A stretch of DNA of 64,000 nucleotides from a virus. Shown here in pieces: positions 45,729 to 62,245 of this stretch. The stretch covers positions 1 through 64,000 of IMG/VR virus record IMGVR_UViG_3300035687_000005; one strand, 5' to 3'. Within the stretch, counting starts at the first letter, position 1; the number at the start of each line of letters is the position of its first letter. A model generated the notes under the pieces. That model made no database searches and was not told where the DNA came from. It saw only the letters and a list, made by a program, of their open reading frames with translations. A program made the translations under genes and the position numbers.

Positions 45729-46109
45729 TCAGAGCCACGTCACGGCCGCCGCGTTGATGAGCAGGTGCAGCGTGTTGTCGGCAATGATCATCAGCCAGAC
45801 CGCGAGCCATGGCGGGGTGCCGTCGGGGTATCCGGTCGCAGTGTGGCCAGCCCGGAACGCCTTCGGGGCTGCGAGGTTCTTGAGCCAGACGACGTGGCGG
45901 GCGAGCCGGTACCGGTCGATGACGATGTGCGTGCCGCCGATGACCAGCAGCGCCCACGGCGACCGCGTCACCAGCAGGTACGGCAGCGTGTACGTCAGCC
46001 CGTGCGCGACCGCCGGCCACCACCGCTTCGTCTTCTCGCACGCCATCCAGTGCGACTGGAATAGGTAGTCACCGACCAGGTGGGCCAGCACGATGCCGAG
46101 CGCGGTCAT
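45729..46109 (-). CDS. DUF3307-family membrane protein (126 aa)
   Basis: The landmarks of DUF3307 are present: LAHLVGDYLFQSHWMACEKT at the start, AVAHGLTYTLPYLLVTRSPW, and HIVIDRYRLARHVVW, with conserved His and Asp residues inside helices. Family members occur in bacteria and phages, with no settled function. ATG 46109 is preferred because GGGAG lies five bases upstream. It sits next to the rightward mini-genes as part of the same inserted cassette. Confidence 0.75.
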   Translation of the reverse strand: MTALGIVLAHLVGDYLFQSHWMACEKTKRWWPAVAHGLTYTLPYLLVTRSPWALLVIGGTHIVIDRYRLARHVVWLKNLAAPKAFRAGHTATGYPDGTPPWLAVWLMIIADNTLHLLINAAAVTWL

Positions 46110-46192
46110 GCTGACTCCCATTTAGTCCGATGGCTAAATCTGGCGTTGGTAGCCGCGGATTAGCCGCACAGAGTTACGTGGTGGGTGATTGC

Positions 46193-46615
46193 CTAGCCCG
46201 GCACGCTCGTGAAGCCGTACACGTCGACCTGGTCCACGATCAACGGACCCGTCAACTCGTCCCGGCCCGCCGGTTGCCCCTCACGCCACCGAATCGGGAA
46301 ACACGACCGGCCCGACACCACCGGAGTCACATCCAGCAAAGCCGTCCGAACCCGGGTCGCGACCGCCCGGGCCGCGACCGCGTTACCGCCGACGCTGTGG
46401 CAGTACGCCCACAGATCCACCACGCTGGAATCGAAGTTCAACGACACCTTGTCCGGCGCCGTCAGACCGTCCGGTGTGGCCACGTAGAAGTACACGAGGA
46501 CGTACGGCGGCTCCTGGCCGGCCGGGACGAACCCGTCGAGCACCACCAGCGCCGGCGCCGTGTTGTCCGCGTCGAGCAGATCCAGCACAGCCCTGGCGTG
46601 CGCCTGGATCGTCAC
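46193..46615 (-). CDS. Tail terminator-type protein (140 aa)
   Basis: Alpha/beta protein of the tail-completion class: helix HARAVLDLLDADN, strands VLVYFYVATPDG and SLNFDSSVVDLWAYCHSVGG, helix AAARAVATRVRTALLD. Position after the HK97 gp10-like gene is the canonical one for the tail terminator. Expected to cap the tail tube and join it to the head. Confidence 0.75.
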   Translation of the reverse strand: MTIQAHARAVLDLLDADNTAPALVVLDGFVPAGQEPPYVLVYFYVATPDGLTAPDKVSLNFDSSVVDLWAYCHSVGGNAVAARAVATRVRTALLDVTPVVSGRSCFPIRWREGQPAGRDELTGPLIVDQVDVYGFTSVPG

Positions 46616-47004
46616 GAAAGACCCGCCTGCTTCACGGCCAAGTCCTCCATGGCCCGCTCGAAGCGCGGCTTCTCCGTGGCACCAGCCGGGCCCATGTGCG
46701 GGTGCGGTCGGTTGTTCACCGACCCGTACTCGAACAGATTGCCCAGGGCGCCCTGACGTTTCGCCTTGTCCGGGCCGATCTCAGCGATCGCGCCGCCCGG
46801 GGTTTCCCGCGTGTCGTACGTGATGGCACTCGGATACGCCGGAGCGTGCGCCGGGCTCCCGACCAGGCGACGGGCCTCCGTCTTGATGTTCACGGCGCCC
46901 TTGGCGACAACCTTGCGAGCCTCCGCCGGAGCCACCCCCGCCGCGTCGACGAGAATCCGCTCCAACCCCCGGACGTCGTCGACGCCCGTCACCGTGACCT
47001 TCAT
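46612..47004 (-). CDS. HK97 gp10-family neck/tail-completion protein (130 aa)
   Basis: N-terminal VTGVDDVRGLERILVDAAGV, a helix with ARKVVAKGAVNIKTEARRLV, then PGGAIAEIGPDKAKRQGALG-NLFEYGSVNN and PHMGPA, matching the gp10/HK97 neck-protein pattern (the 'A-x-x-E-x-G-x-x-x-x-P-x-x-P-x-x-x-x-A' end). ATGA-type coupled with neighbours. Part of the head-tail joining set. Confidence 0.85.
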   Translation of the reverse strand: MKVTVTGVDDVRGLERILVDAAGVAPAEARKVVAKGAVNIKTEARRLVGSPAHAPAYPSAITYDTRETPGGAIAEIGPDKAKRQGALGNLFEYGSVNNRPHPHMGPAGATEKPRFERAMEDLAVKQAGLS

Positions 47005-49451
47005 CAGCTGGTCCTCTCGGTGACCTGGACACGCCGGGCGGTCGCATCCGTCTTGTGCGCCAGATCGCGCACCAGGAACACCCGGCCGGGCAGGTCCGCG
47101 TCGTACGCGGCCGCGGTGATGGTCACCTCGTCGCCGACCTGCAGCCCCGTCACCGACATGGGCAACTGCACCTCGAGACGCAGCAGCAGCAGGTGCGCCT
47201 CACCGGCGTCACGGGGCTCCGCCTGGGCCTGCGCCTGCTGCACCCGACACTTCCCGGCGTACAAGCTCGCCCAGGTCGGCGTGATCGTGCCATTGGCCTC
47301 ATCGGTGGTCTCACCGGTGCGGCGGCGGATCGTGCACGTGTCCGCCATGCCCGCCTCGGCGACGACCCGGGCGCGGGCCAGTACGGCGGCGCGGGGACCC
47401 GAGGTGACGGCCCCTGCGGTGACGCCGGCCGTAGCGGACGCGGCGGCCACCGCCGGGGCGAGAACGCTCGCCGCCGCACCGGCGGCCGTGCTCGTGGCCG
47501 CGGCCACGCTGGTCACGGCGGGCAGGGTGACGGCGGTACCGCCAGCCACCACCGTGTCGAACACGGTCGACATCGACACGCGGGTGGTGGCGTCCAACGA
47601 CGTGATGCCCGAATAAGCGACCGTGATCAGGTCACCGTCGTCGGTGACGTCGAGCCACCCGTACGCCTGCACCGTGCTCGGGCTGTTCGTGTACGACCCG
47701 GCCGACCAGGTGTCGGTCACGGCGACGGACGCCTGCTGGAACGGGGCGCCACCGGCCTGCGGGATACCCCGGGTGCCGGTTCCTGTGCCGTCGTCGGCGG
47801 CGAGGAAGTGTCGGTCGCCGAAGATCGCGTAGACCTGGCCGGGAACGTGGGCGTCGATGTAGTCGGACAGCTCGGTGAACTCGTTGAGGTACGAACCCCA
47901 CCGCCCCGACCCGGCACCATCGTCGCGCCACGGGTAGTTCCCGCAGATCACCTTGACCGGTTCGGCGTCGAGAAGTCGAGCCTTGAACCAGGCCTTCTGC
48001 TCCGTGCCCAGCATGGACTTGCTGGAGTTGTCAGGGTCGGCCTGCGCGTTGCGGTACGACCTGACGTCGAGCTCGATGAACCGCACCCGGCCGATCACCC
48101 AGGTGTGGTAGCCGCCACGGCCGTCCGTCGCAGGCAGCGGGTACGCCGGGAACACCTTGCGGTAGCCGGCGGCCACGACCGTGCCGGCAACGGCGTCCTT
48201 GTCGGACGTGTCGCCGCCCCAGTCGTGGTTGTCCCACAGGTAGTTCAGTGGAATCTTGGCCAGCGCCCCGGCCATGCTGACCGAACCGAGGGAGACCATG
48301 TGCTGGGCGAAAACCTGTCCGGCTGTGGCGGCCCCACTCCAGTCGGAGTAGCTCATGTCACCCATGTGCACGATCTGCAGGGCCCTACCGCCGGCCGCCC
48401 CCGTCTTGGCGAGTATCGCCGCGAAGGTGGAGTCCGAGGGGACGGTGAACTGGCACGACCCGAAGGCCAGGCTGAACGACGCCGCCGCCCCCGCGGTCGG
48501 GAACGTTTTCACCTCGCCGCGGCCGGTCGCGAGCAACACCCCGTCGCACTCGACGCCGAGGTAGTACTGGGTGGCCGCGGACAGCGACCCGACCGTCAGC
48601 TTCACCACCCCGTCTGCGTCCGGGGCCACCGACGACGAGTACACGGGCGATGTCAACGCGGCGCTGGTCGAAACGACCATCCGGGCCAGTGCGGTGCCCG
48701 CGACGACGAACGCCGCGGTGAAACCGGCATCGGTCACCGCCCCCGACCAGGGCCCGTAGAGCAGAGTCGGGGCGACCGGGGTGGTCGGGTAGCCGGTCGT
48801 CGACCAGGCGAGGTCGTCGATGTCGACAGCGAACGAAGTCACCCCAGACCGGATCATTCCCGCCTGGAACTTATTCGACCCGCCGGCGCCGAGGGTGTTG
48901 ACCGTCGCCGCGCTCGTCAACGTCTCCGACACGTTGCCGTTGGCATCGTAAATCTTGATCTCGGACTGGCCCACCGTCGCCGAGAACGTCAGGACCGCCA
49001 CGCCGACGTCCAGCCACGCCCCGGCCACGTACGTCGTGGTGGAGATGGCCAGCTGGGTGCCGGCGGAGTTCCGAAGCCGAATCTTCCCTGCGTTGTTGAT
49101 GCTGAAGTCGCCGACGAACGCCCCAGTCGAGTCCGTGATCACGGCGAAGCGAACCCCGGTGGCGTCCGGCGGCAGGACCGGCAACCGGACCCGCATCCGC
49201 CCGTACACGCTGCCCGTCGACGACGTACCCATCGCCGTCGTGATCTCGCCGTAAACCAGGCCCGCAGTGCCCCCGGACGCGAACCGGCCACACAGCGACC
49301 CCCGGTAGGGGGTCGTCGCGTAGAAGGTCGCGGACCCGGTCGCCGCGATGTTCACGAAGTTGAACGCGGTACCCGACGCGCCACCGGAGTTGCCGGTCGT
49401 GATGGTCGATCCGCCGGTGCCGCCCTCGAACGTGTTCAGCGTGCTAGTCAC
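47004..49451 (-). CDS. PhoD-like phosphatase fused to the head-closure protein (815 aa)
   Basis: Three parts in one frame. Residues 1-220: a LamG/concanavalin-like beta sandwich. Residues 228-640: a PhoD-type metallophosphoesterase with its N-terminal Ig-like part and the metal motifs FGSCQ (330-334), MGDMSYSDW (363-371), WDNHDWGGD (406-414), GNYPW and FGDRHFL. Residues ~690-815: a head-closure (DUF6093-type) protein beginning PRAAVLARARVVAEAGMADT and CTIRRRTGET, then SLYAGKCRVQ, LLLLRLEVQLPMSV and FLVRDLAHKTDATARRVQV. The join is an Ala/Thr/Val-rich linker. Head-closure proteins are normally separate 120-160 residue proteins. The enzyme would be fixed at the neck of the virion (inference). 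Confidence 0.85.
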   Translation of the reverse strand: MTSTLNTFEGGTGGSTITTGNSGGASGTAFNFVNIAATGSATFYATTPYRGSLCGRFASGGTAGLVYGEITTAMGTSSTGSVYGRMRVRLPVLPPDATGVRFAVITDSTGAFVGDFSINNAGKIRLRNSAGTQLAISTTTYVAGAWLDVGVAVLTFSATVGQSEIKIYDANGNVSETLTSAATVNTLGAGGSNKFQAGMIRSGVTSFAVDIDDLAWSTTGYPTTPVAPTLLYGPWSGAVTDAGFTAAFVVAGTALARMVVSTSAALTSPVYSSSVAPDADGVVKLTVGSLSAATQYYLGVECDGVLLATGRGEVKTFPTAGAAASFSLAFGSCQFTVPSDSTFAAILAKTGAAGGRALQIVHMGDMSYSDWSGAATAGQVFAQHMVSLGSVSMAGALAKIPLNYLWDNHDWGGDTSDKDAVAGTVVAAGYRKVFPAYPLPATDGRGGYHTWVIGRVRFIELDVRSYRNAQADPDNSSKSMLGTEQKAWFKARLLDAEPVKVICGNYPWRDDGAGSGRWGSYLNEFTELSDYIDAHVPGQVYAIFGDRHFLAADDGTGTGTRGIPQAGGAPFQQASVAVTDTWSAGSYTNSPSTVQAYGWLDVTDDGDLITVAYSGITSLDATTRVSMSTVFDTVVAGGTAVTLPAVTSVAAATSTAAGAAASVLAPAVAAASATAGVTAGAVTSGPRAAVLARARVVAEAGMADTCTIRRRTGETTDEANGTITPTWASLYAGKCRVQQAQAQAEPRDAGEAHLLLLRLEVQLPMSVTGLQVGDEVTITAAAYDADLPGRVFLVRDLAHKTDATARRVQVTERTS

Positions 49452-49473: not shown

Positions 49474-49902
49474 TCAGCTGGCCGGCATGGTGACAGTCGC
49501 CGACGTGATGTCGACGGTGAGACCGATCGAGACGGTCGTCGTCGCCAACGTCAGGTCACCGCCGCCGCCGGTCGCCGTGACACTGCCGTCATAGACGCCC
49601 AGCCCGGTCGCCGCAGCCTCAGTGCTGTCGAGGACCCGGAACCATCCCGCGGTGCCGGCGGCGACACCGGTGGCGGTAACCGCGGGGGTTACATCCAGCG
49701 TCGCTACACCAGCCGCAACGGAGAACGCCGGGTCGGACAGGGTTAACTCGGCCAGCAAGGTGCCGGACGGGGCCGTGCCCGGCCCGGCCGGCTGCGCGCC
49801 GCTGTAAATGCGGATCTTGCCCGCTGACGAGCCGCCGTCGACCAGGTTGGCGATCGCCTGGGCCGCAGCCGTACGCGCCGCGGTAGAGATACGGGTGGCC
49901 AT
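49474..49902 (-). CDS. Structural-type protein (142 aa)
   Basis: Starts ATRISTAARTAAAQAIANLV then KIRIYSGAQPAGPGTAPSGT and LLAELTLSDPAFSVAAGVAT: the opening seen in many phage-structural beta proteins. Gly/Thr/Ala-rich. Lies between the fiber-like repeat protein and the PhoD/head-closure gene. Probably a minor virion protein. Confidence 0.65.
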   Translation of the reverse strand: MATRISTAARTAAAQAIANLVDGGSSAGKIRIYSGAQPAGPGTAPSGTLLAELTLSDPAFSVAAGVATLDVTPAVTATGVAAGTAGWFRVLDSTEAAATGLGVYDGSVTATGGGGDLTLATTTVSIGLTVDITSATVTMPAS

Positions 49903-50039: not shown

Positions 50040-52823
50040 CTAGGGTCTGCTCGTGACGCCGGTGTCGGGACGGACGGTGATGCCGCCGCCTGGACGTGGG
50101 GTCGTCGCGCCGGCGCCGGGACGGACGGTCACACCGGACGCCGGGCGGACGGTCACACCCGAGGCGGGGCGGACCGTGATGCGCCCAGGTGTCGCCGTCG
50201 TCGCGTCGTACGCGGCACCGGTCGCCTCCGCCGCCTGCGCGGCGACGGTGGAGCTGATGGTCGCGAGCCACGCTGCCGCGACGGCCTCGGCCTGGTCGGC
50301 GAGCGCCTCCACGGACGGGGTTACCTGGCCGACCGCACCCGTGCCCGCCGCGGCCGTCGCCCCGACGGTGATGGCCACGGTGGCGTCGGACGCCGACCCG
50401 GTCGCCGCCGCAAAACCTGCAGGGGCGGCCGTTGAGGCGCTGGTGCTGACCGTCGCATCGGCCGCCGAACCGGCAGCGGTCGCGACACCGGACTGCGAGG
50501 TGACCGCGGCACTCGCGTCAGCCGCAGCGCCGGTGCCCAGGGCGGCATCAGCCGGCGCGTTGGTCGTGCCGGAGATCGCGACCGTCGCGTCAGCCGCGGA
50601 CCCGGTCGCGGCCGGAGCCTGCGCCTGAGTAGCCAGACCTGAGACCGCGTCGGAAGCCGTACCCGCCGCGGCAGGGGCGTCGGCGGAAGCTGCGACCGCG
50701 ACAGCCGCATCCGCTGCGGTGCCGACCGCGTCGGCCTGCGCAGCCGCGACACCGACAGCCGCCGAGCCGTCAGCCGCAGCGGCCGCACCCGTGGCCGACG
50801 CGGCGTCGACCGTGGCCGACACCGCGGCGTCGGCTGCGACACCGGCCCCGGATGCCGTCGCGGCATTGGAGGCGGCAGCCGCAGTCGCGGCGTACGCCGT
50901 ACCGACGCCGAGCGTCGCCTCGGCGTTGATTGCTACACCGGTGGTGGCGTCCGCCGACGAACCGACACCCGAGGGCGCCTCGGCGTTGACCGCGACGGCG
51001 GCGACGGCATCAGCTGCCGAGCCGGTACCGGTGGTTGCTTCGGCCGGGGCGTTCGTCGACGACGCCGTCGAAACGGTGGCGTCGTAGGCCGCGCCGGCGG
51101 CCAGAGCGGACTCGGCGTTAGGCGCCACCGACGATGTGGCATCGGCCGCCGCACCGGTGCCGGTCGGGCTTTCCGCAGCTGCGGTAACGGCCACTGTGGC
51201 GTCTGCTGCGCTGCCGACACCCTGCGTCGCCTCAGCGCCGGCACCCACGGCCGGTGTCGCGTCTGCTGCCGCTCCGGCGCCGCCTGGCGCCTCGGCGTTG
51301 GCGGCCAGGGACACGGCAGCGTCAGCCGCAGAACCGGCGGCCAGGGTGCTCTCAGCGGGCGCGTTGGTGGTGCCGCCGCCGGGAATCGTCGGCAGGATCT
51401 CCGCGAGACTGATCCGGTTGTTGCCACCCGGCGGGTTGTCCAGACCGATGACGATGCCGACCAGCGACTTCGACACCCCGGACGCCGCGAACAGGGCGGC
51501 GGTGTCCCCGGCGGTGCCGTTGACGTACCCGAACAGGGTCGTGTTCGCGTTCGCGGTGACGGCCTGCGCGTCGAACGCCCGGCCGAGCGCACCGGCGATG
51601 AGACTGCCCGGGGTGGTCGGGGCGATCGCACCGGCGTAGGCGATGTCGCCGCCGCCGGCCAGGGTCGCGCCGGGTTGCGACGCCACCGGGGCCGCGTTGC
51701 TGTACCACTTGCAGATCAGGGCCAGGCCGGACGCCGCCGCGCCGCCCGGGTCGTACGTGACGGTCATCGCGGCACCCGTGGTGATGTCCCGGGCCCAGAT
51801 TTCGGCGACACCACCGGTGCCCGACGCGTCGCCGGGGCCGAGCCGGGACCAGGTCCCGCCGAGGGAGTCGGTGACCGCGCCCAGGGAACTGGCCGAGCCG
51901 ACCCCGTTACCCATCGCGCAGTACGCGACCAGCAGGGTCCCGTTCGCCGGGGTGAACGACGCCGACGTGATCGTGGCGGTGTTCGCGCTTGCGAACGCGG
52001 TGGTGCCGACCTCGGTCACGACCGTGTCCGGGGTCAGGTTCTCGACGACGCGCGGATCTTCGACGAACCGCTGCGACGGATTCGGGCCGTCACCGGGCCA
52101 ATACGACCACGGCGTCGATCCGACCTCGGGCGTCGAACTGACCGGGGTGACCTCGATGGCGATCCAGCGCGCGTTCTGCGTCGACGGGGTCGTCAGGTTC
52201 ATCGTGATCGGCGAACCCACCACGCCGTCGTTCGCGGTCCGCAGGATCACGGCATGCGACAACAGGCCGGCCTCGTTGGCCGCATCACCACCGGTGGTCG
52301 TACAGCCGGCCCCGGCGGACGGGGCGCCCGTACCCGCGTCCCAGTCGGCCCAGCCCATGACACCGCGGCTGCCGGTGACGGTCGCGGTGATGTTCTGCGC
52401 AACGGACGTGATGGGCGTCAGGGTCGCGTTCTCGATGGGCGTTCCGACACCTGGGGCGACGCCCGAGCTGTCGGTCCACACCTGGACCTTCAGTGCCCGG
52501 CCGGAACCGGCCGGGTTGTCGTCCGACGTGGTGACCGTCATCGCTGCCGACGTCGCCACCACGGCCGTGAACAGCGACATCGACCCGTTGGCCGCGTTGA
52601 TGTCAGGGTTCCGGTTGTGCGCCTGCAGCGTGTAGGTGAGATGAACGCCGAGGTTGTCCGTGATCGTCGGGTCCGCCGGGGTCGCGGCCGCGTTGCCGTT
52701 GTTCCGCAGCCAGATCAGCAGCAGCGACCCGGCGGGCGGAGTGAACGACGCCGTCGTCGCGGTGACGGTGGCGGTTGTCCAAACAGTCGCCGGCGAGGAC
52801 GCGTCGAGGGAGAGCGCGCCCAT
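50040..52823 (-). CDS. Long Ala-rich repeat protein, candidate virion fiber (927 aa)
   Basis: Residues 1-480 hold two related beta-rich domains, each of the type TATITSASFTPANGTLLVAY / FTPPAGSLLLIWLRNNG with GVAEIWARDITTGAAMTV. Residues ~485-845 are about 17 tandem 20-residue units of the form A-x-A-E-A-P-x-G-x-G-S-A-A-D-A-T-V-A-V-x. The last 45 residues are six 8-residue units around ITVRPASG. No coiled-coil heptad; regular small-residue repeats suggest a beta-solenoid or extended rod. Two head domains plus rod suggests a fiber or head decoration. No enzyme motif is visible. Confidence 0.75.
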   Translation of the reverse strand: MGALSLDASSPATVWTTATVTATTASFTPPAGSLLLIWLRNNGNAAATPADPTITDNLGVHLTYTLQAHNRNPDINAANGSMSLFTAVVATSAAMTVTTSDDNPAGSGRALKVQVWTDSSGVAPGVGTPIENATLTPITSVAQNITATVTGSRGVMGWADWDAGTGAPSAGAGCTTTGGDAANEAGLLSHAVILRTANDGVVGSPITMNLTTPSTQNARWIAIEVTPVSSTPEVGSTPWSYWPGDGPNPSQRFVEDPRVVENLTPDTVVTEVGTTAFASANTATITSASFTPANGTLLVAYCAMGNGVGSASSLGAVTDSLGGTWSRLGPGDASGTGGVAEIWARDITTGAAMTVTYDPGGAAASGLALICKWYSNAAPVASQPGATLAGGGDIAYAGAIAPTTPGSLIAGALGRAFDAQAVTANANTTLFGYVNGTAGDTAALFAASGVSKSLVGIVIGLDNPPGGNNRISLAEILPTIPGGGTTNAPAESTLAAGSAADAAVSLAANAEAPGGAGAAADATPAVGAGAEATQGVGSAADATVAVTAAAESPTGTGAAADATSSVAPNAESALAAGAAYDATVSTASSTNAPAEATTGTGSAADAVAAVAVNAEAPSGVGSSADATTGVAINAEATLGVGTAYAATAAAASNAATASGAGVAADAAVSATVDAASATGAAAAADGSAAVGVAAAQADAVGTAADAAVAVAASADAPAAAGTASDAVSGLATQAQAPAATGSAADATVAISGTTNAPADAALGTGAAADASAAVTSQSGVATAAGSAADATVSTSASTAAPAGFAAATGSASDATVAITVGATAAAGTGAVGQVTPSVEALADQAEAVAAAWLATISSTVAAQAAEATGAAYDATTATPGRITVRPASGVTVRPASGVTVRPGAGATTPRPGGGITVRPDTGVTSRP
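50290..51355 (-). repeat. Tandem 60-base coding repeats (20-residue units)
   Basis: The segment encodes a run of 20-residue units sharing GxGSAADATVAV and NAEAP elements; two units carry a 4-residue insertion (SSTNAPAE, GTTNAPAD). DNA copies are imperfect, so the array is old or under selection for protein shape. The unit count (about 17) was made by eye. Confidence 0.7.
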
Positions 52824-53749: not shown

Positions 53750-54523
53750 TCAGGAGGCGTGCGCCTCCAGGTAGGTAATCGCCGCTCGCAGGCGAGACGG
53801 CTCGTCCTTGAAGTTGCCGAGGCCGAGGTTGCAGTGGTGGCAGAGCAGGCCGCGCACCCTGCCCGTGGCGTGGTCGTGGTCGACGTGCCATGCGCCCTTG
53901 CCGCCGGGCTCGGCGGCGGGGCAGATCCCGCAGCTGCCGCCCTGCTCGGCCAGCATCTCGGCGAACCGATCGGGGGTGACCCCGTACAGGTACATCCGGT
54001 TGTACGCAATGGTGGTCTTGCGGCGGGTCGGATTACTGATCCGCTGAGCGAGCGTCTTGCATTCCGGGGAGCAGTACAGGGCGTTAATCGGCCTGTTGGG
54101 TGAAATCTGCTCGTCACACTCGGCGCACGGACGATCTACAGCCTTCTTCGCGCGGAGGGTACGTAGCCGGACCTGCTCGTTACTCCAGGCGTCGCCACAC
54201 TTGCGGGAGCAGAACCGCTGCGTAATGGTTTTCTGCTCGATTGCCTGCTCACACCAGGCGCAGTTGGTGCGACGAGTCGCCCTGCGGTGCACAACGGCCT
54301 CATGCTTCCGGGCATCCATCTCATCGTCCTTGCAGGACTTAGAGCAGAACTTCGCCCCGAACCGACGCTCCAAGGGAATTACGCCCCCGCAACGCTGACA
54401 CGGACCGTGGACCTTGGGGGCCACCTCGTCGAGGCGTCCTTGGGTCTTGATCCGCTGATAGTCGTTGCTACACAGCCCCCGCGCAACTGGCTTGCTTTCG
54501 CAGCCGTCCATGATGCATGTCAT
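53750..54523 (-). CDS. Endonuclease VII-family protein with zinc-finger array (257 aa)
   Basis: The last 85 residues are a recombination-endonuclease-VII/HNH core: YLYGVTPDRFAEMLAEQGGS, CGIC, WHVDHDHATGRVRGLLCHHC and NLGLGNFKDEPSRLR. The N-terminal 170 residues contain a chain of Cys knuckles (CQRCGG, FCSKSC, CAWC, FCSRKC, CAEC, YCSPEC), giving about five zinc fingers. The gene is A/T-richer than its neighbours and starts six bases after TAGAGT, so it has its own promoter. This resembles a free-standing homing endonuclease set between structural genes. Confidence 0.85.
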   Translation of the reverse strand: MTCIMDGCESKPVARGLCSNDYQRIKTQGRLDEVAPKVHGPCQRCGGVIPLERRFGAKFCSKSCKDDEMDARKHEAVVHRRATRRTNCAWCEQAIEQKTITQRFCSRKCGDAWSNEQVRLRTLRAKKAVDRPCAECDEQISPNRPINALYCSPECKTLAQRISNPTRRKTTIAYNRMYLYGVTPDRFAEMLAEQGGSCGICPAAEPGGKGAWHVDHDHATGRVRGLLCHHCNLGLGNFKDEPSRLRAAITYLEAHAS

Positions 54524-55711: not shown

Positions 55712-56923
55712 TCAGCCATCGGTGGCGAAGACCGTCTTCATGGCGACCCGGGTCGTACCGTCCACCGACGTCACGCCCTCATAGCTGATCGTGATGTCAT
55801 CGCCGGAATCAGTGACGTCGAGCCACCCGTACGCCTGCACAGTCGTCGACGACGGACCGTACGTGCCCTGCGACCAGGACTCACCCGGCGACGTGGTGCC
55901 CCGCTGGAACGGCGACCCACCGGCCTGCGGCACCCCACGACCGGACTTCGACACGCCACTGTCGGCCGCCAGATGATGCCGGTCCCCGAAGATGACATAC
56001 AGGTGACCCACCATGTCCGCGACCGAAACGTTCAGCTCCTCGAACTCGTGGACGTAGGAGCCCCAGCGGCCACCGGACGCCGACCCCGCCCGCCACGGAT
56101 AATTCCCACACAGAACCTTCACCGGCTCCGGCTCGAGCAGCTGCGCCTTCAGCCACGCCTTCTGCTCCACGCCCAACATCGTCTTCGCCGGACCCGCCGG
56201 ACAGGACTGCGGATCCCGGTACGAACGAGTGTCGATCTGCACGAACCGCACCCGACCGATCACCCACGACCGGTAGGCGCCGCGCCCGTCACCCGCGGGC
56301 AGCGGATACGTCGGGAACACCCGCCGGTACACGGCCGCCACCACATCACCGGCCGGCGCCGTCCGGTCGCTCGTGTCGCCGCCCCAGTCGTGGTTGTCCC
56401 ACGTGTACTCGAACGGGATCCTCGCGAGGGTCGGGGCCATGGACGCCGACCCCAACGACACCATGTGCTGGCCGAACACCTGCGCGGCCGTCGTACCCGC
56501 CGACCAGTCCCGATAGTTCAGATCCCCCATGTGGATGATCTGCAACGCCCGGCCGGTGGGCCCCGACCGGGCCAGGATCGCCGCGTACGTGACGTCCGTC
56601 GGTACCGTCTTCTGACACGAACCGAACGCCACCGAGAACGACGCTGGACGACCCTGCACCGGGAACGTCCGCACCTCACCACGGCCCGCCGACAGCAGCC
56701 TGCCATCAGCCTCGACACCGAAGTGGTACCGCGACCCCGCCTGCAGACAATCCACCGACAGCAACACCGCGCCGTCGGCATCCGGCGACACCGACGGCGA
56801 ATGGACCGGCGAACCCAGGTCAGGCGACCTGGACACCACCAGCCGCGCACTCCCCACCCCGGCGAGGGTGTAACCGGCGATGAAACCCGACGCGGTGACC
56901 CCACCGGACCAGGGACCCTTCAT
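55712..56923 (-). CDS. PhoD-like metallophosphatase, stand-alone copy (403 aa)
   Basis: Residues 1-85 are the PhoD N-terminal Ig-like domain and 90-400 the phosphoesterase domain, with FGSCQ, HMGDLNYRDW, WDNHDWGGD, GNYPW and FGDRHHL in the same order as in the fused protein at 47004. The two share about half of their residues by eye and a 30-base stretch of identical DNA over the WDNHDWGGD motif. It lacks the LamG-like N-terminus and the head-closure tail. Such enzymes hydrolyse phosphodiesters (teichoic acid or phospholipid); a virion location would suit attack on host wall polymers. Substrate is not known. Confidence 0.85.
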   Translation of the reverse strand: MKGPWSGGVTASGFIAGYTLAGVGSARLVVSRSPDLGSPVHSPSVSPDADGAVLLSVDCLQAGSRYHFGVEADGRLLSAGRGEVRTFPVQGRPASFSVAFGSCQKTVPTDVTYAAILARSGPTGRALQIIHMGDLNYRDWSAGTTAAQVFGQHMVSLGSASMAPTLARIPFEYTWDNHDWGGDTSDRTAPAGDVVAAVYRRVFPTYPLPAGDGRGAYRSWVIGRVRFVQIDTRSYRDPQSCPAGPAKTMLGVEQKAWLKAQLLEPEPVKVLCGNYPWRAGSASGGRWGSYVHEFEELNVSVADMVGHLYVIFGDRHHLAADSGVSKSGRGVPQAGGSPFQRGTTSPGESWSQGTYGPSSTTVQAYGWLDVTDSGDDITISYEGVTSVDGTTRVAMKTVFATDG

Positions 56924-56947: not shown

Positions 56948-57550
56948 TCAGGCGCGATGAGTGGAAGCGATCAGCGGCACAGAGCCGGCCGGCCGGCCGT
57001 ACTGACGCCGCAGCAACCGCTGCAGCGACTCCGACGCCTCGAGCTGCGTCGACATCGCCGCGTACGTGGCGGCGTAGTCGTCGATCCGGACCTGAACAGC
57101 ACCATCCGGAACCTCGTACGGGCCCCTCGCCAGCGACAACACCGTCGACCGGGCCAGCTGCAGACGCTGATGCCCGGTCGCGTACCCGTGGGTGTACGTC
57201 ACCGTGACCGTGGACGGCTGATCGGCGTAGGCGACCAGGGTCGACCGCCACCCGTAAGCCCGCCACAAACGCCCACGCCGAAGCTGTGGGGTGAAGTCGG
57301 TGACCGTGGTCGCACCGACCAGGACCGCGCCGACCGCTGTCACCGGGCGCTCCGGCAGGTCGAGGTACAACCCGCCGCACCCGTCCAGGTCAAACGTCAC
57401 CGTGTCGTTGACGACCTGGACGATCCGCTGACCGACCACCGCCTGCACAACCGCAGTCGCGCACTCCAGCAGGAGCGTGGCGGTGGCCGTGTCGACGTCC
57501 TGCTGCAACAGGGAGGCGAGGTCCGAAGGCGTCGCGAGTTGATCAGCCAT
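56948..57550 (-). CDS. Head-tail connector (gp6-like adaptor) (200 aa)
   Basis: Matches the adaptor pattern: ATPSDLASLLQQDVDTATAT at the start, a helix LLLECATAVVQAVVGQRI, strands VVNDTVTFDLDGCGGLYLDL and LPERPVTAVGAVLVGATTVT, then VTYTHGYATGHQRLQLARST. The expected position is after the capsid gene. The helical C-terminus (LQRLLRRQYGR) may contact the portal ring. Confidence 0.8.
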   Translation of the reverse strand: MADQLATPSDLASLLQQDVDTATATLLLECATAVVQAVVGQRIVQVVNDTVTFDLDGCGGLYLDLPERPVTAVGAVLVGATTVTDFTPQLRRGRLWRAYGWRSTLVAYADQPSTVTVTYTHGYATGHQRLQLARSTVLSLARGPYEVPDGAVQVRIDDYAATYAAMSTQLEASESLQRLLRRQYGRPAGSVPLIASTHRA

Positions 57551-58371: not shown

Positions 58372-59325
58372 TTACGGGATCAGCAGGCTGCCGACGGGGT
58401 ACCGGCTGGCCTCGGTCGGCTGGTCGTTGTTGATGGTGTTGGCGACCTGCCATCCGACGCGGAACGTCAGCCGGATCGCGGTCATGTCCTGCTGTGCCAA
58501 ATTGTAAACAATTGCCCCGGTGTTGTCCTGGATGACCGCCTCGGTCAGGATCTTCAGGGTGATGTCCTGCCGAACACCCACCACGAACTGCGACCAGTCG
58601 CCGCCGAACAGCCGCGGCGAACCCGACGCGGTCGGCCACAGGCCACGCATCGGGTAGACGATCGGGAAGCCGTCGAGGGTGGTGATCCCGCCATCCGCCC
58701 GCCCGGCGTCGAGCTTGCGGCCCTGCGAGTCCCGCGCGGTGCGGATCTTCGCCTTCGCCGACGTTGACGCAGCCCAGCCGCTGATGTCGAAGCCGTCCGC
58801 TTCGACCTTCCCGTACAGGGTGTCAACGTCGCCGTAGTAGCCGCCCGCCGCGGCAGCCGCGCCCTCGGTGGTGTTGTTGCCGGCCGCGGTCACCGCGGCG
58901 TTGATGTTCGTCGGCCACGAGCTGGGGGCGTTGGTGCCGAAGTACACGGCGGCGTCCAGGGTCCGGCCGACAGCCTCGGTGAGCAGCGGCATCGCCTCGT
59001 CCCAGATGTTCGCGTCGACGTCGGCGATCACGTTGTCCGGCACCGGCATGATCGTGGCGATCTCCTCGATGTTGAGGAACTTGTTCGCCCAGTTCACCTC
59101 GGTGGTCTGCTTCAGACCGGTGTCACCGTTGACGAAGTACGCCACCGGCAGCGCCGACAGGACCGGGAACCGGACCTGCGCCCGGCCGACCGGGACCCTG
59201 CGGAACAGGCTGAGGACCGCCGACTGCTCGGTGGCCTTGCCGAACATCTCCCGAGACACTTCCTCGGGGATCAGCGCGCCCGAGTCAGTGCGGCTGGTCA
59301 GGTTGTTGTACGCGATGGGACTCAC
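58372..59325 (-). CDS. Major capsid protein, HK97 fold (317 aa)
   Basis: Size, position after the scaffold gene and sequence layout fit an HK97-type capsid protein: LIPEEVSREMFGKATEQSAV, LFRRVPVGRAQVRFPVLSAL, VNWANKFLNIEEIATIMPVP, the E-loop/P-domain region with LLTEAVGRTLDAAVYFG, and the C-terminal RLFGGDWSQFVVGVRQDITL and TAIRLTFRVGWQVANTINND. GTG start with AAGGAG close upstream. A terminator follows, consistent with high capsid expression relative to distal genes. Confidence 0.9.
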   Translation of the reverse strand: MSPIAYNNLTSRTDSGALIPEEVSREMFGKATEQSAVLSLFRRVPVGRAQVRFPVLSALPVAYFVNGDTGLKQTTEVNWANKFLNIEEIATIMPVPDNVIADVDANIWDEAMPLLTEAVGRTLDAAVYFGTNAPSSWPTNINAAVTAAGNNTTEGAAAAAGGYYGDVDTLYGKVEADGFDISGWAASTSAKAKIRTARDSQGRKLDAGRADGGITTLDGFPIVYPMRGLWPTASGSPRLFGGDWSQFVVGVRQDITLKILTEAVIQDNTGAIVYNLAQQDMTAIRLTFRVGWQVANTINNDQPTEASRYPVGSLLIP

Positions 59326-59941: not shown

Positions 59942-60850
59942 TCAGATCAAATACCCGTGCAGCCGGAGCAGGCGCAGCGCCTCGTCGCGGTTGCCCTTCG
60001 CCTCGAGGTAGACCTGCTCGGGCATGAGCCGAACCGGCCGGTTGATGCCGCGCCGGGTCGTCGCCTCGGTGGTGAACTTCCGGCCGCCGGCGGTGTACGT
60101 CCCGCGGCTGGCGTTCACCACCCGGGAGATGTCCGCGCCGTCGCGGATCGCCTGCGCCCCGGCCGCCGTGAACAGCTTGTCCTGCTCCTCGCGGGGCAGG
60201 CTCTTGAAGTACGCCTTCGGGTCCGTGCGCAGGTCACCGGCGGCGTCCTCAGAAGTGGGAATGTGCCGGCAGTCGCACCGAAAATGTCGTTTGAAGCCCG
60301 CGTTCCAGCGGTAGCGCTTGCCCGCCAGGACCACGCACCGGGCGCAGGACGGCAGCGACAACATCCGCACGTACCCCGTGAACCGGGGACGAGCGACCAG
60401 GGCGACCTGGTCCGCGACCCGACCCGCGTCCGCGACCTGCGTCCGGACGATCAGATCGACCGCGAAACGGCCCGCCGCCATCGCCTGCCGCTCATTGCGG
60501 CCCGCCTTCAGCGCGGTCAGCGCCGCAATGGCGGGCTGGAACATCAACGTGTCCAAGGCGCGCCCGTCCGACGCCACCCCGGCGAACGCCGCCGCCCTCA
60601 CCAGCCCCTGCGACGCATCCGGCAGCCCGTACTCGGCCGCCAGGTCGTCCAGGTACGGGCCCGCACCTGCGGCCGCGATCGCCTGCGCCGACGACACCAC
60701 CGTCAGCACCGCCGGCAGCGCGTGCCGCCACGACAAGGCGATCGACTGCCGGTCCACCCTGGCCCACAAACCGACCACCTCGGAGGCCGCGCGCCGCGCC
60801 AACGCCTGCTGGCGACGCAGCCGGGCGCCCGCCAGCTGCAACGCTGACAC
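59942..60850 (-). CDS. MuF-like minor capsid / head morphogenesis protein (302 aa)
   Basis: Contains the MuF-type zinc/Cys region: LPSCARCVVLAGKRYRWNAG, FKRHFRCDCRHIPTSEDAAG (residues about 170-210). The N-terminus is helical (LAGARLRRQQALARRAASEV). Placed between portal and scaffold genes, as in many siphophages, where it joins the procapsid near the portal and may be injected with DNA. The C-terminal 80 residues are basic, possibly DNA-binding. Confidence 0.85.
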   Translation of the reverse strand: MSALQLAGARLRRQQALARRAASEVVGLWARVDRQSIALSWRHALPAVLTVVSSAQAIAAAGAGPYLDDLAAEYGLPDASQGLVRAAAFAGVASDGRALDTLMFQPAIAALTALKAGRNERQAMAAGRFAVDLIVRTQVADAGRVADQVALVARPRFTGYVRMLSLPSCARCVVLAGKRYRWNAGFKRHFRCDCRHIPTSEDAAGDLRTDPKAYFKSLPREEQDKLFTAAGAQAIRDGADISRVVNASRGTYTAGGRKFTTEATTRRGINRPVRLMPEQVYLEAKGNRDEALRLLRLHGYLI

Positions 60851-60859
60851 CGGTTACCC

Positions 60860-62245
60860 CTACGGTCCGGGCGGCTGCTGCTGCCCGAAGGCACTGGTCA
60901 TAGCGCCCAGCGGGTCCAGCAGGTTCTGCGCGGCGCGCAACGTCTTCCACCGCTCGATCTCCGTCTGCGACGCACCCCACCGCTCCCACAGCGCCTCGTG
61001 GGGAACGCCGAGGGTGGCCATCTTCGTCAGCGCGTCGACCAGCTCACCCTCGGTCCTGAACTCGGGGTTGCGCCAGATCGTCTCCATGGCCTCGTCGCCG
61101 CCGCCGAGCCTCGCGGCCCTGCGCGCGACCCGGGCCGTCTCCTCCAGGCCCTCACCTGAGGTGCGGTGCCGCTGCCGAACCTTCGACACCAGGCCCGACT
61201 CGGACGCCTTCAACGTCGACCCGTTCACGTTCGACATCTCACCCAGCAGATACTGCGCCGGCGTGCGAGTGCGGCTCGCGATGTCCTTGACGTCCTCGCG
61301 TTTCGCCGCGCTGTACGGATCCAAGGGGGCGGCGTCCCACTGCCCGAACCGGGCCTCGGCCACATCGGTCGTGACCATGCGGTCGCGGCCGATGTCCACC
61401 TGGTTCCTGTTGCCGTCGGCGTCCTGGTCCGGGAAACCGATCGCCCACTTCTGCGGGAACGCCCCGAAGTCCTGCGTCATCAACCGGTCCGCGATGGTCT
61501 TCGAGATCCGGTCCTGGATCGACACCACGTCGGCGATCTCACTGACGCCACCGGTCAACATCCGCGGGTTGTTGGTCACCTCGATCAGGGGCACCTCGCC
61601 GAGCGGATTCGGCGCCGGCCAACGCTCGCCGCGCACCTCCCGGGGCTCCCACCGCGGCTTACCACCGGTACCGGGGGTGATCTTCTCGGCGCTGAATTTG
61701 TACAGCACATCCGGCAGGTACAGGGTGGCCATAGTCTGACCGGTCCAGTCGTCCCGCCACACCTTCAGCCCGGCGGCCCGTGCCCGGCGGCCCGTGCCCG
61801 ACTCGTACGCCACCGTCGCCTGCGTCGGGTGCTCCGGGTAGATCAGCGGCCGTGCAGGCACATCCAGGTTGGGCGCGACCAGGAAGAACGAGCAGCCGCC
61901 GATCGCGGACTCCAGCAGCACCTGATCGGAACCCGAGTCCAAGTTGTTGGCCTGCCAGATCTCCCACGTCGGCTGATCGGCGGCCGGGTCGTCACCAACC
62001 CGGAAACCCTCCACCTGCATGCGCTCGACCATCGAATCGATGACCAGACCCATGTAGTTCGACTTCGTCAGGCGCAGGAGCCGACGGAACTCACTCTGCG
62101 CCTGTGCCGGCAGCCACGGCATCCGCGGCGGCTCACCGCGGTAGTAGGCGTCCATCAGCTCGAAGTGCTCGCGCTGGACCTGCAACTGGTCGTAGAGCCG
62201 CTTCACCCACCACAGCGGGGAACCCGGGGGGTCAGACTGCGTCAC
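60860..62245 (-). CDS. Portal protein (461 aa)
   Basis: SPP1 gp6-like portal signatures: LLRLTKSNYMGLVIDSMVER near residue 55-75, then the wing and stem regions with VIEVTNNPRMLTGGVSEIAD (about 220) and SIQDRISKTIADRLMTQDFG, KVRQRHRTSGEGLEE in the crown. Length is typical. Forms the dodecameric ring at the unique vertex through which the terminase packages DNA. Confidence 0.9.
   Translation of the reverse strand: MTQSDPPGSPLWWVKRLYDQLQVQREHFELMDAYYRGEPPRMPWLPAQAQSEFRRLLRLTKSNYMGLVIDSMVERMQVEGFRVGDDPAADQPTWEIWQANNLDSGSDQVLLESAIGGCSFFLVAPNLDVPARPLIYPEHPTQATVAYESGTGRRARAAGLKVWRDDWTGQTMATLYLPDVLYKFSAEKITPGTGGKPRWEPREVRGERWPAPNPLGEVPLIEVTNNPRMLTGGVSEIADVVSIQDRISKTIADRLMTQDFGAFPQKWAIGFPDQDADGNRNQVDIGRDRMVTTDVAEARFGQWDAAPLDPYSAAKREDVKDIASRTRTPAQYLLGEMSNVNGSTLKASESGLVSKVRQRHRTSGEGLEETARVARRAARLGGGDEAMETIWRNPEFRTEGELVDALTKMATLGVPHEALWERWGASQTEIERWKTLRAAQNLLDPLGAMTSAFGQQQPPGP

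What the first reader, a model, noticed from the sequence alone, without database searches (positions are those of the whole stretch)
47004..49451. Head-closure protein fused to a PhoD-like phosphatase and a LamG-like domain
The C-terminal ~125 residues read as a normal head-closure (DUF6093-type) protein, but they are preceded in the same frame by a full phosphoesterase with intact metal ligands and a beta-sandwich. The order of neighbours (gp10-like, tail terminator) shows this is the only head-closure candidate. Every virion would then display an enzyme at the neck. That suggests a virion-borne activity on teichoic acids, phospholipids or nucleic acid, or a novel neck appendage ('whiskers') with enzymatic heads.
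Basis: partly seen in the sequence, partly recalled or inferred. Interest (0 to 1): 0.87.

Follow-up and report, generated by a model that had tools for sequence, protein, structure and literature searches.

The report
Phage neck protein carrying a phosphodiesterase
An uncultured phage appears to encode the small protein that seals its head as the tail end of a much larger protein that also carries a sugar-binding-like domain and an intact phosphate-cutting enzyme, which would put the enzyme on the neck of every particle; relatives show related enzymes attached to other virion parts.

Summary
ORF 47004-49451(-) is one 815-codon frame: a concanavalin/LamG-like sandwich, a PhoD-type phosphodiesterase with conserved motifs, a ~50-residue Ala-rich disordered stalk, and an intact DUF6093 domain whose predicted fold matches solved phage stoppers/head-closure proteins. 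It is the only DUF6093 copy found in the window. 47 of 49 distinct relatives have a start codon at the head of the closure domain; the window has none there. ATG702, with a moderate ribosome site, would give a closure lacking its N-terminal helix.

The closure fusion is unique among loci examined, but not isolated. The adaptor-to-closure gap is an insertion slot: 16 of 17 loci with an insertion carry a protein ending in an 'RPxTGxTxRP' tail. A Micromonosporaceae prophage has LamG-PhoD-stalk fused to a different head-tail-region protein, separate in a relative. Other loci fuse PhoD to a DUF5047 tail protein, and the LamG-like head to Dit.

Best reading: a virion-borne phosphodiesterase anchored at the neck through the closure ring. 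Production of the fusion, its presence in virions and its substrate are untested; some free closure by internal initiation is not excluded. New variant of a known kind.

The parts
47004..49451 (-). Fusion ORF, 815 aa, GTG start: LamG/ConA-like sandwich, PhoD phosphodiesterase, Ala-rich stalk, DUF6093 head-closure
48768..49451 (-). Residues 1-228: concanavalin/LamG-like beta-sandwich
   Evidence: phrog_25497; predicted model moderately confident here, matches lyase/lectin-like sandwiches such as 2zzj
48477..48767 (-). Residues 229-325: N-terminal Ig-like domain of the PhoD unit
   Evidence: secondary structure of model m0c54b3d81101, inside the 2yeq match; boundaries read from the model by eye
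47547..48476 (-). Residues 326-635: PhoD metallophosphoesterase; motifs GSC333, GD365..Y368.D370, WDN408HD410, GD546RH548 conserved
   Evidence: PF09423; alignments A1, A4; 2yeq match by sequence E 7e-19 and fold E 5e-23
47394..47546 (-). Residues 636-686: Ala/Val/Thr/Ser-rich stalk, predicted disordered
   Evidence: pLDDT about 30-36 from residue 641 on; composition
47004..47393 (-). Residues 687-815: DUF6093 head-closure/stopper domain
   Evidence: model m03fb66843b0f matches stoppers of Chi, SPP1, lambda, Douge
47406..47408 (-). Codon 682 GTC where relatives start the closure gene; AGGGG lies at 47411-47415. Possible relic start, suggestive only
   Evidence: ribosome-site score -3.1
46612..47004 (-). 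Neck1/HK97-gp10-like protein
   Evidence: phrog_5, phrog_19109
46193..46615 (-). Tail completion/terminator-like protein
   Evidence: PF11367 E 2.6e-4, below its cut-off; position
49474..49902 (-). 142-aa virion structural protein of the insertion slot
   Evidence: phrog_3758
50040..52823 (-). 927-aa stalked protein with RP-repeat C-terminal tail; the same tail occurs in the same slot of relatives
55712..56923 (-). Second PhoD gene, 403 aa, no sandwich and no stalk, directly after the adaptor
56948..57550 (-). Head-tail adaptor
   Evidence: phrog_442 E 6.7e-18
58372..59325 (-). Major capsid protein
   Evidence: phrog_10 E 7.9e-51
60860..62245 (-). Portal protein
   Evidence: phrog_104

Best explanation
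The ORF encodes a real fusion protein. Its DUF6093 end builds the head-closure (stopper) ring between adaptor and tail terminator. Its N-terminal arm, a carbohydrate-binding-type sandwich plus a PhoD-type metal-dependent phosphodiesterase on a ~50-residue flexible stalk, hangs outside the neck. If the ring is a hexamer, as the equivalent ring is in phages A-1(L) and Milano, up to six enzyme arms would surround the neck. During adsorption they would bind and clip phosphodiester-containing surface polymers of the actinobacterial host (teichoic-acid-like glycopolymers most likely), helping the particle approach or detach. Shown here: the fused frame, intact domains, fold and position of the closure domain, and lack of a normal separate start. 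Inferred: expression, assembly, copy number, display, substrate.
For: Continuous frame with coding-type composition through the linker. Closure domain keeps the invariant residues of 16 aligned relatives, folds with mean pLDDT 84.7 and matches solved neck/stopper proteins: phage Chi 8vhx_F Z 10.7, SPP1 7z4w_1 Z 9.1, lambda 8k37_M and Douge 8zdj_M Z 8.8. PhoD part matches B. subtilis PhoD 2yeq by sequence (E 7e-19) and fold (E 5e-23); motif residues invariant or nearly so in A4. Only DUF6093 copy found in the window, in the normal closure position. 47 of 49 distinct relatives have a start within -12..+6 codons of the closure HMM start, the window none; internal GTG 646, 649, 668 score +0.7, -2.4, +0.6 against a median of -9.25 for 16 aligned relatives' starts and -6.75 for 24 window genes. 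The slot before the closure normally holds RP-tailed proteins: 16 of 17 loci with a >=900-bp adaptor-closure gap. Parallel fusion: L101, 877 aa, LamG-PhoD-stalk joined to a protein that is a separate gene between capsid and Neck1 in L115, 74% identical. Other fusions: PhoD to a DUF5047 tail protein (L107), LamG head to Dit-type protein (L109).
Against: No second example of a PhoD-DUF6093 fusion: 0 of 54 other loci with a closure hit, and no GenBank phage record covers 80% of the query, 0 of 119. ATG702 has a ribosome-site score of -5.9, near the gene median, though 7 of 48 internal ATG/GTG codons in this ORF (itself included) score as well or better. In L101 a strong internal start (GTG731, -11.6, best of 63) sits just before the neck-protein part, so there at least free protein is likely made. 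In phage A-1(L) the N-terminal helix of the hexameric neck ring hooks the ring above (passages read); a 690-residue arm on that end must find a way out. One metagenomic sequence only; no protein data.
Confidence: 0.58

Rival explanations
1. Dual output: the fused frame is read through, but most closure subunits come from internal initiation (ATG702, or a weak codon such as GTC682), so the ring is a mixture of bare and enzyme-bearing subunits.
For: ATG702 has GAGG upstream and scores -5.9; several solved stoppers start at model residues 14-18, that is without most of the N-terminal helix, and ATG702 is model residue 20; parallel fusion L101 has a strong internal start, -11.6, before its neck-protein part.
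Against: All 16 aligned relatives start upstream of the helix, and so do the annotated stopper of Arthrobacter phage Hum25 and its homologue in Brevibacterium phage AGM16, 17 and 19 codons upstream of the ATG702 position; 7 of 48 internal codons score as well as or better than ATG702, itself included.
Confidence: 0.22
2. Recent accidental fusion: stop and start between a LamG-PhoD-stalk gene and the closure gene were lost, and the genome is a passing or defective variant with no selected neck enzyme.
For: Unique among the loci examined; a possible relic AGGGG + GTC where a start would lie.
Against: Closure and phosphodiesterase motifs intact; no other decay seen in the head-tail genes examined; a parallel fusion exists in another lineage.
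Confidence: 0.12
3. Sequence or assembly error joining two separate genes.
For: Single metagenomic record; codon 682 would be a start with one substitution.
Against: From codon 647 to 701 no stop exists in any of the three frames and from 669 to 701 no ATG/GTG/TTG in any frame, so one insertion or deletion error there cannot restore two genes; at least one stop-creating and one start-creating change would be needed.
Confidence: 0.05
4. Fusion precursor cut in the linker during capsid maturation, freeing the enzyme.
For: The phage encodes a head maturation protease (phrog_1522, 59942-60850) and the linker is predicted disordered.
Against: No cleavage site tested; closure rings join after packaging in well-studied phages (general knowledge), when the protease is usually gone.
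Confidence: 0.03

Closest known systems
Head-closure/stopper proteins (SPP1 gp16, lambda FII; Pfam DUF6093)
   Same: Fold, gene position between adaptor and Neck1/terminator, conserved residues
   Different: Here the domain has no start codon of its own at the usual place and sits behind 686 residues of sandwich, enzyme and stalk
PhoD-type phosphodiesterases (B. subtilis PhoD 2yeq; PF09423; phrog_25497, phrog_13624, phrog_24476)
   Same: Sequence, fold and conserved motifs
   Different: Phage versions examined are mostly stand-alone or in tail-end gene clusters (L003, L008); here joined to a neck ring protein
phi29 pre-neck appendages and T4/XM1/A-1(L) collar fibres
   Same: Proposed place (neck) and, for phi29-type appendages, proposed action on cell-surface polymer (phi29 activity recalled; collar structures from passages of PMC10491603 and PMC10966104)
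   Different: Those are separate fibre/appendage proteins that dock on the neck; this would be covalently part of the ring
PhoD-DUF5047 (L107) and LamG-Dit (L109) proteins
   Same: Related heads fused to virion structural proteins
   Different: Tail-tip proteins, not the neck
LamG-PhoD-stalk fusion L101 (Micromonosporaceae prophage)
   Same: Same heads and stalk type joined to a protein of the capsid-Neck1 interval
   Different: Other neck protein (adaptor position by synteny only), strong internal start kept

Membership tests
Head-closure/stopper (DUF6093) | Match to the curated family over its cut-off | tested here: met
   110.7 bits against 27.9
Head-closure/stopper (DUF6093) | Stopper fold | tested here: met
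   Top VIA-align rows are mostly phage neck/stopper chains, Z up to 10.7
Head-closure/stopper (DUF6093) | Gene between adaptor and Neck1/terminator | tested here: met
Head-closure/stopper (DUF6093) | Independent small gene of ~130 aa | tested here: not met
   No start at the domain head; 47 of 49 relatives have one
Head-closure/stopper (DUF6093) | Forms the ring in virions | not testable with these tools
   needs protein work
PhoD phosphodiesterase | PF09423 match over cut-off and PhoD fold | tested here: met
   28.1 bits against 27 (narrow); 2yeq E 7e-19 and 5e-23
PhoD phosphodiesterase | Metal-binding motif residues | tested here: met
   SC, GD..Y.D and WDNHD invariant, GD.H nearly invariant in A4, aligned to 2yeq; ligand roles recalled
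PhoD phosphodiesterase | Phosphodiesterase activity | not testable with these tools
   needs an assay
LamG/ConA-like domain | Jelly-roll sandwich fold | tested here: met
   sandwich-type PDB matches for the N-terminal part, model moderately confident; no Pfam LamG match
Neck appendage/whisker | Physically projects from the neck | not testable with these tools
   cryo-EM needed
Adaptor (for the C-terminus of L101) | Profile similarity to the adaptor family phrog_442 | tested here: inconclusive
   hhalign A5 v A6 found nothing, 3 rows only; no Pfam or PHROG match; identity rests on synteny

The most novel reading that the evidence does not exclude
Many actinobacterial siphophages use the neck as a modular display platform. 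The adaptor-to-closure gene slot encodes stalked 'whiskers' with swappable heads that dock by an RP-repeat tail on the neck. In some lineages the enzyme head is covalently built into a ring protein: the closure in this window, an adaptor-position protein in the G288 prophage, where an internal start would tune how many subunits carry the enzyme. The fusion is then a Rosetta stone saying where the RP-tailed proteins sit.
Probability: 0.33. Interest if true: 0.78.

Novelty: new variant of a known kind. Interest (0 to 1): 0.62.

Why it matters
It would put a catalytic activity on the one neck ring that DNA must pass, covalently and in every particle, and would show how phages move enzyme heads between tail tip and neck. 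It also points to a cargo slot between adaptor and closure genes with a recurrent RP-repeat tail, giving a testable address for a set of otherwise unnamed virion proteins.

Tried and rejected
Considered a normal separate closure gene inside the ORF: rejected for the normal start region, kept as a rival for ATG702/GTC682. Considered long open frames at other DUF6093 loci as further fusions (up to 494 aa; up to 543 aa, among over-cut-off matches). In the inspected loci with long upstream frames the peptides are Arg/Gly/His-rich, with third-position bias mostly near zero or negative. L022/L065 (0.27), L091 (0.24), L027 (0.17), L035 (0.14) and L061 (0.12) show positive bias over 62-198 codons; for L022, L027, L035 and L061 the peptide is non-protein-like and a separate small gene fills the stretch; L091 is a weak hit that I did not inspect. 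Not fetched: 3 of 25 over-cut-off matches and 4 of 25.

Alignment A3 mixed PhoD and closure rows, aligned wrongly and was not used. hhalign of the L101 C-terminus against the adaptor profile gave nothing; PHROG, Pfam, PDB and GenBank-phage searches with it or with its L115 relative gave no adaptor match. Two IMG/VR scans found no relative; one search found three loci matching only around the closure part, not analysed further. The p927 stalk protein has no GenBank phage match. The search listings showed nothing on a closure-enzyme fusion; I read no paper from them, and the library lacks most subscription journals. The Fisher value (4.5e-10) for the RP tail is inflated, since loci with a gap of 5-131 bases have no room for the gene; I rely on 16 of 17 instead.

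Full report
Observation. The finding's ORF is real: 815 codons on the minus strand, GTG at 49451, stop at 47004, no internal stop, third-position G+C 0.81-0.97 in 40-codon blocks including the linker. Pfam finds DUF6093 at 695-811 (E 6.7e-32) and PhoD at 393-554 (E 1.5e-6, 28.1 bits against a cut-off of 27). PHROG finds phrog_25497 over 5-633 (E 2e-117) and phrog_13779 over 690-813. The window belongs to an IMG/VR record of 64,407 bases.

Setting. On the minus strand: terminase, portal, head maturation protease, scaffold, capsid, adaptor, a second PhoD gene (55712-56923, 62% identical), small genes, an endonuclease VII-type gene, the 927-aa stalked protein, a 142-aa virion protein, the fusion, Neck1-like, tail completion-like, tail genes. 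Only one DUF6093 domain was found in the window.

Domains. The closure domain was modelled with 17 aligned sequences (mean pLDDT 84.7). The best VIA-align rows are mostly neck/stopper chains: phage Chi Z 10.7, SPP1 Z 9.1, lambda and Douge Z 8.8. Residues 1-690 were modelled with 13 sequences (mean pLDDT 77.9; about 30-36 from residue 641 on). The best PDB match is B. subtilis PhoD 2yeq (E 5e-23), with sandwich-type lyases and lectin-like domains for the N-terminus; a profile search also finds 2yeq (E 7e-19). The motifs SC, GD..Y.D and WDNHD are invariant, and GD.H nearly so, among 13 sequences. That these are metal ligands is recalled from the PhoD structure.

Is there a separate closure start? 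No ATG/GTG/TTG lies between codons 669 and 701 in any frame, and no stop in any frame from 647 to 701. In 49 distinct relatives (54 loci with a hit of 59 examined; 5 gave no or a weak hit), 47 have a start within -12..+6 codons of the HMM start; the 2 without are weak hits. Ribosome-site scores: 24 window genes median -6.75; 16 relatives' closure starts median -9.25; internal GTG 646, 649 and 668 +0.7, -2.4 and +0.6; ATG702 -5.9, one of 7 of 48 internal codons at that score or better. Codon 682 (GTC) with AGGGG upstream is where a start would be expected; this may be a relic or chance.

How common is the fusion? GenBank phages: 119 records match the protein, 0 cover 80% of it; 73 match the closure part. 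In the 2 records opened, the matching gene is separate: an annotated head-to-tail stopper in Arthrobacter phage Hum25 and a hypothetical protein in Brevibacterium phage AGM16. Among 300 Micromonosporaceae and 394 class-level genomes the longest frame around an over-cut-off DUF6093 match is 494 and 543 aa, against 848 stop-to-stop here. So the PhoD-closure fusion is unique in what I could search.

The slot. Of 39 distinct relatives in which the adaptor was also found, 22 have 5-131 bases between adaptor and closure, and 17 have about 1.5-5 kb. In 16 of these 17 the insertion contains a protein with a C-terminal RP-repeat tail; those read in full have a variable sandwich-like head and Ala-rich repeats before it. 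The window's 927-aa protein has the same tail. The tail was seen only in this slot among the loci held, apart from opposite-strand Arg-rich noise.

Parallel fusions. L101 (877 aa, Micromonosporaceae genome G288) is LamG-PhoD-stalk followed by a protein that stands alone in L115 (74% identical) between capsid and Neck1-like genes; in L112 the fusion lies between capsid and Neck1-like, terminator-like and major tail genes. It is the only copy found in that genome. I call it adaptor-position by synteny only. It has a strong internal start just before the neck-protein part (-11.6, best of 63). L107 joins PhoD to a DUF5047 tail protein, and L109 joins the LamG-like head to a Dit-type protein. Stand-alone PhoD relatives lie in tail-end clusters (L003, L008) or after the capsid genes (L001, cut by the contig end).

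Mechanism. I commit to a neck-anchored phosphodiesterase carried on the closure ring. Hexameric rings at the equivalent place are described for Milano and A-1(L) (passages of PMC10491603 and PMC10966104), giving up to six arms; the count for this phage is inferred. The A-1(L) ring uses its N-terminal helix to hook the ring above, a constraint that the ~50-residue stalk would have to meet. Teichoic-acid-like polymers are the likeliest substrate, from recalled work on B. subtilis PhoD and from the lectin-like sandwich; this is the weakest step.

Verdict. Observation confirmed, interpretation partly supported, new variant of a known kind. The strongest open doubt is whether the fusion or a shorter internal product supplies the ring.

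Noticed in passing
window 55712-56923 (-): Second PhoD gene, 403 aa, 62% identical to the fusion's enzyme, ending right where the stalk begins in the fusion, directly after the adaptor gene.
   Followed up: partly
window 50040-52823 (-); L018, L021-L024, L027, L029, L031, L034, L035, L057, L061, L067, L069, L070, L076, L096: Insertion slot between adaptor and closure genes carrying proteins with an RP-repeat C-terminal tail and, where read in full, Ala-rich repeats; 16 of 17 loci with an insertion.
   Followed up: yes
L101:763-3396 (-), L112:8277-10910 (-): LamG-PhoD-stalk fused to an adaptor-position protein, with a strong internal start just before that part.
   Followed up: yes
L107:1486-3879 (+); L109:403-2133 (-): PhoD fused to a DUF5047 tail protein, and LamG-like head fused to a Dit-type tail protein.
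   Followed up: partly
L112:13359-15965 (-): 868-aa ORF matching head maturation protease at both ends with an RNA-ligase-family match between.
   Followed up: no
window 53750-54523 (-): Recombination endonuclease VII-type gene inside the adaptor-closure slot, perhaps a homing-type passenger.
   Followed up: no
L104:1414-4116 (-): PhoD domain at the C-terminal end of a long frame with a membrane-protein-like N-terminus.
   Followed up: no
window 45729-46121 (-): DUF3307 membrane-protein gene between tail completion and tail genes.
   Followed up: no
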